From positions 1 to 64,000 of the forward strand of contig NZ_JACXXJ020000001.1 in assembly GCF_014926405.1 (NCBI RefSeq): a stretch of 64,000 bases of DNA. Direction: 5' to 3'. Numbering within the stretch: the first letter of the stretch is position 1; each line of letters begins with the position of its first letter. The position numbers and the translations under genes are program-made. The notes under the pieces were generated by a model. That model was given only the letters and a program-made list of their open reading frames with translations. It searched no databases and had not been told where the DNA came from. Shown piece by piece: positions 43,718 through 60,558 of the stretch. The DNA comes from Agrobacterium vitis. GTDB taxonomy: Bacteria; Pseudomonadota; Alphaproteobacteria; Rhizobiales; Rhizobiaceae.

Positions 43718-44977
43718 ATGGGGATCGAGGTGTCAGAGGCAAAACCCACATCGGATGAGGAAGTCGTCATCTGGAGGAATGCGCGACTGGCAACCGTCGC
43801 GGAAGGAACGGATGGCCTTGGCATCATCGACGGTGGCGTAGTCATCGTCAAAGGCGAGCAGATTTCTTATGTCGGTACAGACAATGATCTCCCCGCCTCC
43901 CTGACAAAGGGAGCGATTGAGGTTGATTTGGGAGGTCGGTGGGTAACGCCCGCCCTGATCGACTGCCATACACATCTGGTTTTCGGCGGCGACAGGGCGT
44001 TGGAATTCGAGATGAGGCTTTCGGGCGCAACCTATGAAGAGATTGCGAGAGCCGGCGGCGGCATTGTCTCCTCTGTTAAGGCGACTAACGCGCTTTCGGA
44101 GGACGAATTGGTCCTTCAGGCACTTCCCCGATTGGACGCTCTCCTCTCCGAAGGAGTCGGCACCGTGGAGGTCAAGTCGGGCTACGGCCTCAATGTCGGA
44201 ACGGAATTGAAGATGCTTCGAGCCGCGAGGCGGCTCGCGGCGTTACGCCCTGTGCGGATCGTAACGAGCTATCTGGCAGCGCACGCGACGCCGGAAGCTT
44301 ATCGTGGTAACAACGGTGGGTACATCGAAGATGTTGTTATTCCTGGCCTCGAGGCAGCCAGACGAGAAGGGCTGGTTGATGCTGTCGACGGCTTCTGTGA
44401 GGGTATTGCCTTTTCTCCTGACGAGATTTCTCGCGTTTTCGACGCTGCCGAAAGGCATGGGTTGCCTATCAAGTTGCATGCCGAGCAGTTGAGCAATCTC
44501 GGTGGAGCAAAACTCGCGGCTTCTCGCGGGGCGCTTTCGGCAGACCATCTAGAATATCTCGATGAACATGGCGCCAGGGCGTTGGCTGCGTCTGGGACCG
44601 TTGCCGTCCTCCTGCCCGGAGCTTTCTACACCCTGCGGGAAAAGCAGCTACCACCGGTTCAGGCGCTGAGGGACGCAGGTGCCAGCATCGCCATCGCGAC
44701 AGATTGTAATCCAGGAACCTCGCCTCTGACGTCCATGCTGCTGGCCATGAATATGTCGGCCACGCTTTTCGGATTGAGTGTCGACGAATGCGTTGCTGGG
44801 GCGACCCGGGAAGCTGCGCGTGCACTCGGCTTGGTCACGACCACAGGCACGCTTGAAGTTGGCAAATCCGCCGATTTCGCTGTGTGGAATATCGGGCGAC
44901 CGGCCGAACTCGTTTATCGCATCGGGTTCAATCCGCTGCATGCCCGAATATTCAAAGGCCGCAGATTGCGGCCCTGA
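43718..44977 (+). CDS. hutI: Imidazolonepropionase
   Basis: A 419-residue amidohydrolase opening the imidazolone ring of 4-imidazolone-5-propionate to give N-formimidoyl-glutamate. The metal motif DCHTHLVFGG, the substrate region VEVKSGYGLNV, KLHAEQ and ATDCNPGTSP are typical of HutI. First gene of the rightward hut operon hutI-hutG-hutU-hutD. Confidence 0.95.
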   Translation: MGIEVSEAKPTSDEEVVIWRNARLATVAEGTDGLGIIDGGVVIVKGEQISYVGTDNDLPASLTKGAIEVDLGGRWVTPALIDCHTHLVFGGDRALEFEMRLSGATYEEIARAGGGIVSSVKATNALSEDELVLQALPRLDALLSEGVGTVEVKSGYGLNVGTELKMLRAARRLAALRPVRIVTSYLAAHATPEAYRGNNGGYIEDVVIPGLEAARREGLVDAVDGFCEGIAFSPDEISRVFDAAERHGLPIKLHAEQLSNLGGAKLAASRGALSADHLEYLDEHGARALAASGTVAVLLPGAFYTLREKQLPPVQALRDAGASIAIATDCNPGTSPLTSMLLAMNMSATLFGLSVDECVAGATREAARALGLVTTTGTLEVGKSADFAVWNIGRPAELVYRIGFNPLHARIFKGRRLRP

Positions 44978-45050
44978 AATCAAAAACCATGACTACTCGT
45001 GCGTCGCGATCAGCACCCCATGAGTTGTCTTTTGCAATAGAGAGCAATCG

Positions 45051-45863
45051 ATGAGCGTTTTTGAAGTCCAACAAGGTACTTCCCCCGTCATTCTTGGTGT
45101 GCCGCATACTGGAACCGATGTTCCAGGTGATATATGGCACAAACTGAACGACAATGGTCGACGGCTTGCTGACACCGATTGGCATATACATAATCTGTAC
45201 GATGGCTTGCTGGAAAACGCTACTGTCGTTCGAGCAACCTTCCATCGCTACGTCATTGACGCCAATCGCGATCCGGCTGGGACGTCCTTATACCCCGGCC
45301 AGAATACGACCGGACTCGTTCCGACGACAGATTTCGACGGCAATCCTATCTGGACTATCGGCGCCGAGCCTAGCGCCGAGGATGTGGCAGCACGTGTCGC
45401 CAGCTTCCACGAACCTTATCACGCCGCTCTGCTGGCGGAGATAAAACGGATCAAGGCGATCCATGGTATCGCCATCATCTATGACTGCCACTCAATCCGA
45501 TCACATATCCCCTTTCTGTTCGAAGGCAGGCTTCCGGATTTCAACATCGGCACTGACGGAGGTGTGACCTGCGATCCGCGGATCCAAGAGGCCACAGTGG
45601 ACGTCGTTGCGTCGGCCAAAGGCTTTAGTGGCAACCTCAACGGCCGCTTCAAGGGCGGGTGGACGACGCGCCACTATGGCAGGCCGGAGACGGGCGTGCA
45701 TGCGATCCAAATGGAGCTTGCCCAGTCGACGCATCTCCAGACCGAAGCACCGCCCTTCGCCTACGACCCGGCGAAGGCAGAACGTCTTCGTGTCCATCTG
45801 AACGAAATACTGACGCGCCTGGAGCACGTTGCAGCTGATCTCAAGAACGAAGCGAGGAGCTAA
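45051..45863 (+). CDS. hutG: N-formylglutamate deformylase
   Basis: A 270-residue N-formylglutamate amidohydrolase that releases glutamate and formate, the last step of the five-enzyme histidine pathway. Family features are VPHTGTDVP, DANRDPAGTSLYPGQNTTG and YDCHSIRSHIP with FNIGTDGG. It lies between hutI and hutU, seven bases before hutU. Confidence 0.93.
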   Translation: MSVFEVQQGTSPVILGVPHTGTDVPGDIWHKLNDNGRRLADTDWHIHNLYDGLLENATVVRATFHRYVIDANRDPAGTSLYPGQNTTGLVPTTDFDGNPIWTIGAEPSAEDVAARVASFHEPYHAALLAEIKRIKAIHGIAIIYDCHSIRSHIPFLFEGRLPDFNIGTDGGVTCDPRIQEATVDVVASAKGFSGNLNGRFKGGWTTRHYGRPETGVHAIQMELAQSTHLQTEAPPFAYDPAKAERLRVHLNEILTRLEHVAADLKNEARS

Positions 45864-59733: not shown

Positions 59734-59853
59734 GCAACCTGGTGAGACCGGGAAGCCACATCCCATCTAAAGTTCAGCCATCGATGTCCTCGATATACTG
59801 TCGGACGAACAGCGACGACGAGGATACTGGCGACACCTAGAAGGAGATAGAGA

Positions 59854-60558
59854 ATGCAGCATTGGCTGGACAAGCTGACCGATCTTACGGCAATTGAGGG
59901 CGATGGGTGCATCCTCAAAACAGGGCTGGCGGACGTCGCCGACCATTTCGGCTTCACCGGCTATGCTTATCTCCACATCCAGCACAAGCACATCATCGCC
60001 GTGACCAACTATCATCACGATTGGCGGTCGCTCTACTTCGACAAGAAATTCGACGCTCTCGACCCGGTCGTCAAACGCGCAAGATCCAGGAAGCAGGTCT
60101 TCGCCTGGTCTGGCGAACAGGAGAGGCCGAAGCTATCGGAGGAAGAACGCGCCTTCTATGCACAAGCGGCCGATTTTGGCATCCGCTCCGGCATCACCAT
60201 CCCCATCAGGACCGCCAACGGTTCGATGTCGATGTTCACGCTGGCGTCGGAGAGGACGGCAATCCCGCTTGATCGGGAGATCGATGCGGTTGCAGCAGCG
60301 GCGGCCGTCGGGCAGCTCCATGCCCGCATCTCCTTCCTTCGGATCACGCCCACCGCTGAAGATGCCGCATGGCTCGATCCGAAAGAGGCGACCTATCTGA
60401 GATGGATTGCCGTCGGCAAGACGATGGAGGAGATCGCAGACGTGGAAGAGGTCAAGTACAATAGTGTCCGCGTCAAGCTTCGCGAGGCCATGAAGCGCTT
60501 CGACGTCCGCAGCAAAGCTCATCTCACCGCGCTCGCGATCAAAAGAAAACTGATTTGA
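59854..60558 (+). CDS. traR: TraR quorum-sensing activator, copy 2 (phospho-sugar-operon-linked)
   Basis: A 234-residue TraR about 90 percent identical to copy 1 by my hand count, with about 16 of roughly 24 differences in the first 81 residues and a nearly identical DNA-binding end. Ligand residues Y53, W57, Y61, D70 and W85 are kept. The turn glycine of the HTH (G199 in copy 1) is glutamate here, which may weaken DNA binding. An AAGGAGATAGAG ribosome site precedes the ATG. It lies 120 bases after the sucrose phosphorylase gene on the same strand, with no clear terminator between. Confidence 0.94.
   Translation: MQHWLDKLTDLTAIEGDGCILKTGLADVADHFGFTGYAYLHIQHKHIIAVTNYHHDWRSLYFDKKFDALDPVVKRARSRKQVFAWSGEQERPKLSEEERAFYAQAADFGIRSGITIPIRTANGSMSMFTLASERTAIPLDREIDAVAAAAAVGQLHARISFLRITPTAEDAAWLDPKEATYLRWIAVGKTMEEIADVEEVKYNSVRVKLREAMKRFDVRSKAHLTALAIKRKLI

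What the first reader, a model, noticed from the sequence alone, without database searches (positions are those of the whole stretch)
43718..60558. Two traR copies, each distal in a different nutrient operon: histidine use and phospho-sugar opine use may both gate conjugation
Copy 1 (48714) is in line after hutI-hutG-hutU-hutD and copy 2 (59854) after the importer/phosphodiesterase/phosphatase/sucrose phosphorylase genes. Known: octopine and nopaline Ti plasmids place traR inside an opine operon, and pAtK84b has two traR copies under two opines. Inference: here one input is histidine/urocanate through HutC, an unusual signal for a conjugative quorum system. I saw no strong terminator between hutD and traR copy 1.
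Basis: partly seen in the sequence, partly recalled or inferred. Interest (0 to 1): 0.88.

Follow-up and report, generated by a model that had tools for sequence, protein, structure and literature searches.

The report
Opine-breakdown operons each carrying traR
This plasmid carries four copies of the switch gene for its own spread, each placed at the end of a different food operon, and the one that looked tied to histidine is most likely tied to cucumopine, a tumour compound made from histidine.

Summary
In detail: intact traR genes lie at 48714-49418 and 59854-60558, each last in a same-strand catabolic run (hutI-hutG-hutU-hutD-ORF; ROK-side importer...sucrose phosphorylase). The count is incomplete: the 187-kb plasmid holds four intact traR genes, the others after an octopine cluster (76850) and a second agrocinopine-type cluster (105761). 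The 'histidine' reading needs changing. The hut genes sit in a block shared with cucumopine plasmids; it contains two cucumopine-synthase-family proteins, one 93% identical to a protein on the T-DNA side of an A. vitis plasmid, and hydantoinases. In 72,556 plasmid records, relatives of both markers at 80% identity or more occur in the same 13. HutC-type boxes lie just before hutI, hutH and one synthase-like gene, and ahead of an importer, and are kept in cucumopine plasmid pRi2659. Best explanation (partly inferred): cucumopine is split to histidine, urocanate lifts HutC, and the hut operon reads through into traR1. So the gate is an opine gate read through a common metabolite, although free histidine should also open it. 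This extends a known scheme (pAtK84b has two traR). The architecture already exists in pAtAg67 (2022 paper, not readable here). Nothing on expression was tested.

The parts
43718..44977 (+). hutI, imidazolonepropionase (start may be 43730, as annotated in pAtAg67)
   Evidence: TIGR01224 434.7 bits vs cut-off 298
45051..45863 (+). hutG, N-formylglutamate deformylase
   Evidence: TIGR02017 387 vs 279 bits
45871..47556 (+). hutU, urocanate hydratase
   Evidence: TIGR01228 964 vs 375 bits
47613..48266 (+). hutD (HutD/Ves family)
   Evidence: annotated HutD in relatives; NF008488 77.8 bits, below cut-off 292
48305..48589 (+). 94-codon ORF between hutD and traR1 with a good ribosome site; faintly like a small ORF after hutD in pRi2659 and the ORF before traR3
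   Evidence: no Pfam match
48714..49418 (+). traR copy 1, intact
   Evidence: dN/dS 0.10-0.11 against the pAtAg67 and F2/5 orthologues, which differ from each other by one base
43675..43686 (+). HutC-type box GGTATATACAAA before hutI
35355..35366 (-). HutC-type box before hutH
36753..36764 (+). HutC-type box (GGTCTATACAAA) before the synthase-like gene 36835
37874..37885 (-). HutC-type box (GGTCTATACATA) about 410 bp ahead of the importer genes; a small ORF is annotated between in relatives
32795..33547 (-). hutC repressor
   Evidence: TIGR02018 268 vs cut-off 220 bits
33771..35402 (-). hutH, histidine ammonia-lyase (annotated start in relatives corresponds to about 35300)
   Evidence: TIGR01225 705 vs 539 bits
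35469..36431 (-). cucumopine-synthase-family protein, arrangement A (DUF3830-like N part, helical bundle C part)
   Evidence: PF18631 1.6e-15; PDB Pictet-Spenglerases
36835..37782 (+). cucumopine-synthase-family protein, permuted arrangement B; 93% identical to the T-DNA-side protein of pAvCG412
   Evidence: PF18631 3.4e-15
38293..42101 (+). ABC importer (binding protein, ATPase, two permeases)
   Evidence: Pfam of the binding protein; relatives
42247..43608 (-). hutF, formimidoylglutamate deiminase
   Evidence: TIGR02022 628 vs 413 bits
28432..30393 (-). hydantoinase B/oxoprolinase, marker of the cucumopine block
   Evidence: PF02538; 13 of 908 matching plasmid records at 80% identity or more
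30397..32457 (-). hydantoinase A/oxoprolinase
   Evidence: PF01968
49451..50602 (-). ROK-family regulator divergent from the second operon
   Evidence: PF00480
50837..59733 (+). second run: ABC importer, GDPD, inositol-phosphatase-type enzyme, Na/Pi transporter, sucrose phosphorylase
   Evidence: relatives
59854..60558 (+). traR copy 2, intact
10974..11609 (+). traI, AHL synthase, intact
   Evidence: NF052393 372 vs 250 bits
10809..10826 (.). tra-box-like site before traI/trb (2 mismatches to a recalled consensus)

Best explanation
The plasmid is a pAtAg67-type opine-catabolic plasmid in which conjugation is a multi-input OR gate: four near-equivalent traR genes each lie at the end of a different opine operon. 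Copy 1 is the cucumopine input. Cucumopine (histidine plus 2-oxoglutarate) is imported, opened and split by the hydantoinase and cucumopine-synthase-family enzymes; HutH turns the released histidine into urocanate; urocanate removes HutC from its box before hutI; transcription runs hutI-hutG-hutU-hutD-ORF94-traR1; TraR1 with the TraI signal, above the TraM threshold, switches on tra/trb. Shown by sequence: gene order, intact genes, conserved HutC-type boxes, the cucumopine-family proteins. Inferred: the enzyme direction, HutC binding, read-through into traR1, and the effect on transfer. Copy 2 most likely answers an agrocinopine-like sugar phosphodiester through the ROK regulator.
For: Four traR genes on C1. 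Only 2 Cucumopine_C matches in the 6.4-Mb genome, both in this block, related to solved Pictet-Spenglerases; one protein is 93% identical over 312 residues to a T-DNA-side protein of pAvCG412. The relatives at 80% identity or more of that protein (13 of 16 matching records) and of the hydantoinase (13 of 908) are the same 13 plasmids, among them pRi2659 (called cucumopine Ri in PMC8554961) and pAtAg67 (called octopine/cucumopine catabolic in PMC10745273). HutC box: two sites within 1 mismatch of the footprinted Pseudomonas site TGTA-N2-TACA in 64 kb, 0.15 expected, 1 of 100 shuffles reaching two; refined motif 5 sites with up to 1 mismatch, 0.16 expected, 0 of 100 shuffles reach 5; box kept while flanks diverge in pRi2659. 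No + strand promoter-like site between hutD and traR1. Purifying selection on traR1.
Against: No expression data. HutC binding is inferred; the refined motif was built from the sites themselves, one of its 4 exact genome matches lies inside virE2 on contig C2, and with one mismatch it is no commoner than its reversed control (18 vs 25). HutC in Pseudomonas also binds sites unlike the consensus (passages of PMC12977541 and PMC12772324). The promoter scan is silent before hutI as well, so its silence before traR1 says little. A 124-bp gap precedes traR1. In pRi2659 and three octopine/cucumopine Ti plasmids hutD is not followed by traR, so the link is a late addition. PF18631 does not prove the degradative direction.
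Confidence: 0.65

Rival explanations
1. traR1 is transcribed from its own constitutive or TraR-responsive promoter near 48418-48714, and the hut neighbourhood is incidental, as for the monocistronic traR of pAoF64/95 where the opine acts on TraM instead.
For: 124-bp gap before traR1; pAoF64/95 precedent (abstract and passages of PMC6341043); in the comparison the stretch 48418-48702 finds no counterpart in CG412, CG957 or pRi2659; the promoter scan is blind before hutI too.
Against: No + strand sigma-70-like site and no tra box within 5 mismatches there; the other three traR copies also lie at the end of catabolic runs. No counterpart of mrtR or tmsP was looked for.
Confidence: 0.22
2. The input really is free histidine/urocanate from plants or soil: the block is an ordinary plasmid hut locus and the opine link is incidental.
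For: HutC equivalog and HutC-type boxes; HutC cannot tell the source of urocanate.
Against: Two cucumopine-family proteins and a hydantoinase pair interleaved with the hut genes, at least one with a HutC-type box before it, and confined at 80% identity or more to 13 plasmids; a second HutC homologue (40% identical) lies on contig C5, so another histidine-use system is likely (inference).
Confidence: 0.12
3. traR1 is a transient passenger of one recombination event with no selected role.
For: hut-traR junction over most of the query in 5 of 27 matching plasmid records, about two lineages besides the window; no hut marker upstream in 58 traR loci of genome contigs; only in the own genome among 394 family genomes. 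In one of the five records (NZ_MZ913312) no traR is annotated at the place.
Against: traR1 intact in C1, F2/5 and pAtAg67, dN/dS 0.10-0.11 (in effect one comparison, as the last two differ by one base).
Confidence: 0.1

Closest known systems
pAtAg67, octopine-cucumopine catabolic plasmid (NZ_CP079858; Hooykaas, Shao and Hooykaas 2022, Plasmid 121:102629, not held)
   Same: Same order hutIGUD-traR, ROK...gtfA-traR, octopine cluster; hut-traR junction 100% identical over 481 bp; three traR places
   Different: 131.8 kb; the window's plasmid has four traR; what the 2022 paper says about traR could not be read
A. vitis F2/5 plasmid NZ_CP081841
   Same: Collinear over C1 10.8-104.4 kb at 97.3%; four traR
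   Different: Copies 2 and 4 identical there, 99.3% here; there copy 4 is parted from its cluster by an IS66 element
pAtK84b (two traR under nopaline and agrocinopine; Oger and Farrand 2002, known here from passages in PMC6546132)
   Same: Several traR copies, each in an opine region
   Different: No cucumopine/hut or octopine input in those passages; two inputs, not four
pTiC58 arc operon (passages of PMC5924552)
   Same: traR in an operon under a repressor that responds to an opine breakdown product (arabinose-2-phosphate)
   Different: The repressor there is AccR, a dedicated opine regulator; here HutC, a regulator of ordinary histidine catabolism
pRi2659 cucumopine block (NC_010841)
   Same: Same kinds of genes in the same order and HutC-type boxes
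   Different: No traR after hutD

Membership tests
Opine-gated TraR/TraI/TraM conjugation (Ti/OC repABC plasmids) | Intact TraR of the Ti family, ligand and DNA-binding residues kept | tested here: met
   Y53, W57, D70, W85, T129 (ligand contacts, recalled) invariant in the four copies
Opine-gated TraR/TraI/TraM conjugation (Ti/OC repABC plasmids) | traI, traM and tra boxes on the same plasmid | tested here: met
   traI 10974-11609; traM C1:107251-107556; tra box 18 of 18 at C1:113904 and 16 of 18 at 10809; with up to 5 mismatches 14 sites against 3-8 in 5 base-shuffled copies (consensus recalled)
Opine-gated TraR/TraI/TraM conjugation (Ti/OC repABC plasmids) | traR distal in an operon for an opine | tested here: met
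   By gene order only; co-transcription not testable
Opine-gated TraR/TraI/TraM conjugation (Ti/OC repABC plasmids) | traR and transfer induced by the opine | not testable with these tools
   Needs expression or mating data
Octopine-cucumopine catabolic plasmid (pAtAg67 type) | Cucumopine block: hydantoinases, cucumopine-family enzymes, hut genes | tested here: met
Octopine-cucumopine catabolic plasmid (pAtAg67 type) | Growth on cucumopine and octopine | not testable with these tools
   No growth data
HutC regulon | HutC repressor present | tested here: met
   TIGR02018 above cut-off
HutC regulon | TGTA-N2-TACA-type operator at the regulated promoter | tested here: inconclusive
   Not exact: one mismatch at 35357 and 43675, 0.15 expected in 64 kb; no perfect TGTANNTACA on C1; consensus from passages of PMC12977541
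HutC regulon | Urocanate-released repression | not testable with these tools
   Needs binding or reporter assays

The most novel reading that the evidence does not exclude
A four-input OR gate for plasmid transfer in which one arm is run by HutC, so that urocanate, a common metabolite, stands in for an opine. Any source of intracellular histidine, such as cucumopine or histopine split by the octopine oxidase (histopine is recalled), would then license conjugation, and a bacterial near-copy of the T-DNA cucumopine synthase run backwards would supply it.
Probability: 0.4. Interest if true: 0.68.

Novelty: new variant of a known kind. Interest (0 to 1): 0.52.

Why it matters
It shows conjugation control growing by accretion: each opine operon that a plasmid gathers can bring or capture its own traR. 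If HutC really drives traR1, a repressor of ordinary amino-acid breakdown has become a switch for horizontal transfer, reading an opine only through its end product, which would make the control leakier than OccR- or AccR-type gates. It also gives a sequence-based case for how cucumopine is broken down, by near-copies of the enzyme that makes it.

Tried and rejected
Two-copy reading: rejected, four intact copies. Histidine as a non-opine signal: downgraded. Strong terminator or promoter between hutD and traR1: not found, but the same scan finds no promoter before hutI. On re-checking I lowered the best explanation from 0.68 to 0.65 and raised the own-promoter rival from 0.20 to 0.22 for that reason. 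Conserved RNA switch before traR1: a long hairpin overlaps the traR1 leader (201 nt, z -2.44, 3 of 200 shuffles as good), but a 150-nt window gives z -0.36, the region is nearly invariant among C1, F2/5 and pAtAg67 so covariation cannot be tested, and Rfam has no match at gathering thresholds in 42000-61000: not claimed. tra box near a traR copy: only 5-mismatch sites inside copies 2-4. A box-like site inside hutG at 45181 is conserved but may reflect coding. Literature: searches. One search (traR, histidine utilization, opine, plasmid) found 0 papers; one search (pAtAg67 or octopine-cucumopine) found 2, of which I saw passages of one (PMC10745273) and only the listing and start of abstract of the other. 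I do not claim that the hut-traR link is unprinted; the 2022 pAtAg67 paper may well show it. Oger and Farrand 2002 is not held either.

Results that cut against a broad claim: the HutC motif with one mismatch is not enriched in the genome (18 vs 25 reversed control). No hut marker was found upstream in the 58 traR loci of genome contigs (markers from F2/5, + strand, E up to 1e-15, at least 40% of the marker's length): 18 of 58 had some marker at 50% identity or more, 9 only weaker ones, 31 none. Several of these loci hold only 1-5 kb upstream, and records close to the window's genome may be left out of the collections.
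Full report
What was given. The finding names two traR copies, one after hutI-hutG-hutU-hutD, one after an importer/phosphodiesterase/phosphatase/sucrose phosphorylase run, and proposes histidine/urocanate and a phospho-sugar opine as two gates for conjugation.

Check of the observation. Both genes are there and intact. TraR1 passes the TraR equivalog cut-off and aligns end to end with the solved TraR 1h0m/1l3l. hutI, hutG, hutU, hutF, hutH and hutC pass their cut-offs; HutD does not pass its nearest model but is annotated HutD in relatives. 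Gaps in the first run are 73, 7, 56, 38 and 124 bp. The simple scans give no + strand promoter-like site, and one weak terminator-like site, between hutD and traR1; they also give no promoter before hutI, so they are a weak guide here.

More copies. The window is the first 64 kb of a 187,327-bp contig, C1. C1 carries four intact traR genes: 48714, 59854, 76850 and 105761. C1 10.8-104.4 kb is collinear at 97.3% with the A. vitis F2/5 plasmid NZ_CP081841. There traR follows the hut run, the ROK-side gtfA run and the octopine cluster (occ/oox/arginase/ocd plus an importer); the fourth lies beside a second, DeoR-side agrocinopine-type cluster, from which an IS66 element parts it in F2/5. In C1 the fourth follows a gtfA homologue directly. 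It lies nearest traM and the tra genes. traI is intact, and tra-box-like sites lie before traI/trb and, perfect, at 113904 in the tra region.

The copies are kept and partly homogenised. In F2/5, copies 2 and 4 are identical, within a 2,099-bp gtfA-traR tract at 99.95%, while a 1.6-kb stretch beyond it is about 75% alike. In C1 the tract is 96.9% alike over 2,294 bp (traR itself 99.3%). Between the two plasmids, copy 2 and copy 4 each differ by 5.0-5.4% in traR and 6-7% over the surrounding stretch. This is the mark of gene conversion. Copy 1 is 87-88% identical to the other three in C1 and shows dN/dS 0.10-0.11 against the F2/5 and pAtAg67 orthologues.

What the hut block is. Two proteins in it carry Pfam's Cucumopine_C domain, the only two found in the whole genome. 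Both match solved Pictet-Spenglerases. They match each other as circular permutants: the first half of one aligns with the second half of the other and the reverse. The 36835-37782 protein is 93% identical over 312 residues to a protein of pAvCG412 that lies near ipt, an octopine/nopaline-dehydrogenase-family gene and a RolB-family gene; I take that one to be the plant-expressed cucumopine synthase, though it is annotated hypothetical. In 72,556 plasmid records its relatives occur in 16; the 13 at 80% identity or more are exactly the 13 records with the hydantoinase B at 80% or more. The Paraburkholderia record NC_018696 also has both, 51% and 56% identical, about 1.2 kb apart. The 13 include pRi2659 (NC_010841 and CP019703), called a cucumopine Ri plasmid in PMC8554961 (passages), and pAtAg67, called an octopine/cucumopine-catabolic plasmid in PMC10745273 (passages), with the original paper cited there (not held). 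Cucumopine as a histidine plus 2-oxoglutarate compound that forms a lactam is from general knowledge. The lactam gives the hydantoinases a likely job, as PMC8554961 argues for rideopine (passages).

The regulator. HutC sites footprinted in Pseudomonas centre on TGTA-N2-TACA (PMC12977541, passages), though HutC also binds unlike sites (same paper; PMC12772324, passage). C1 has no perfect TGTANNTACA. Within one mismatch of TGTATATACA the window has two sites, 0.15 expected, and they lie directly before hutH and hutI. A motif refined from these and the site at 36753 (GGTMTATACAWA) has 5 matches with up to one mismatch in the window against 0.16 expected, none of 100 shuffles reaching 5; one of the five lies inside hutG. 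The exact 12-mer GGTMTATACAAA occurs 4 times in 6.4 Mb, three of them in this block and one inside virE2 on contig C2. With one mismatch the genome-wide count (18) is below the reversed control (25), so only the tight cluster is informative. In pRi2659 the boxes stand at the matching places while the flanks have diverged. Seven plasmids were compared, five of them only in part (the stretches); all seven have boxes at the places matching hutI, hutH, the 36835 gene and the stretch ahead of the importer, although in pTiAg57 hutI and hutH are not annotated as genes.

How traR1 got there. In pRi2659, pAvCG412, pTiAg57 and CG957 the same block ends in hutD without traR. C1 and CG412 share weak similarity (67%) from the end of hutD into ORF94, up to about 48418. 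The hut-traR junction covers most of the query in 5 of 27 matching plasmid records: pAtAg67, two 376.8-kb A. fabrum records and two 200.7-kb A. vitis records. Among 394 genomes of the family, drawn from a larger group, only the window's own has it. So traR1 was most likely joined once, after ORF94, to an older cucumopine operon.

Mechanism. Shown by sequence: order, intactness, boxes and the cucumopine-family proteins. Inferred: cucumopine is split to histidine, HutH makes urocanate, HutC leaves its box, and transcription runs on into traR1; TraR1 with the TraI signal and above TraM then turns on transfer. A breakdown product as the signal has precedent: in C58, AccR answers arabinose-2-phosphate (PMC5924552, passages). 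Copy 2 fits an agrocinopine-like input by its phosphodiesterase, phosphatase and sucrose phosphorylase, with a ROK regulator and another importer class.

Known or new. traR behind opine operons, and two traR under two opines, are known (PMC6546132 passages, citing Oger and Farrand 2002, not held). Four traR places in one record are not unique: 6 of the 60 records listed (of 241 matching); intactness of those copies was checked for F2/5 only. The plasmid type is published. What I add is the cucumopine assignment from protein families, the conserved HutC-type boxes that tie traR1 to it, the full count of four and the gene conversion. I rate it a new variant of a known kind.

Limits.

Noticed in passing
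window 35469-36431 (-) and 36835-37782 (+): Divergent pair of cucumopine-synthase-family proteins that are circular permutants of each other (48% and 45% identity in swapped halves).
   Followed up: partly
window 21332-23215 (-): LysR-type regulator of double length (627 aa) with two HTH stretches and one substrate domain, at the edge of the cucumopine block; similar length in F2/5, CG412 and pRi2659, and in pRi2659 only one HTH stretch passed.
   Followed up: partly
C1 copies 2 and 4 (window 58267-60560; C1 104174-106467): gtfA-traR tract homogenised by gene conversion between two operons of one plasmid.
   Followed up: yes
G000 contig C2 (152,864 bp), L114:4555-4899, L127, L133: Co-resident tumour-inducing plasmid has traI and traM but only a decayed traR remnant with a stop, and only part of the relaxase domain was matched; its own transfer system looks damaged.
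   Followed up: partly
L115:5482-7562 (contig C3): Another traR, distal to a DeoR/amidohydrolase/sugar-kinase-like run, split by an insertion holding a transposase-like ORF (those genes named by eye).
   Followed up: no
window 48571-48710 (about): Long imperfect hairpin overlapping the traR1 ribosome site; weak statistics.
   Followed up: partly
window 48305-48589, C1 76467-76808, pRi2659 28958-29146: Small ORFs of faintly similar sequence before traR1, before traR3 and after hutD; no Pfam match for the first two.
   Followed up: partly
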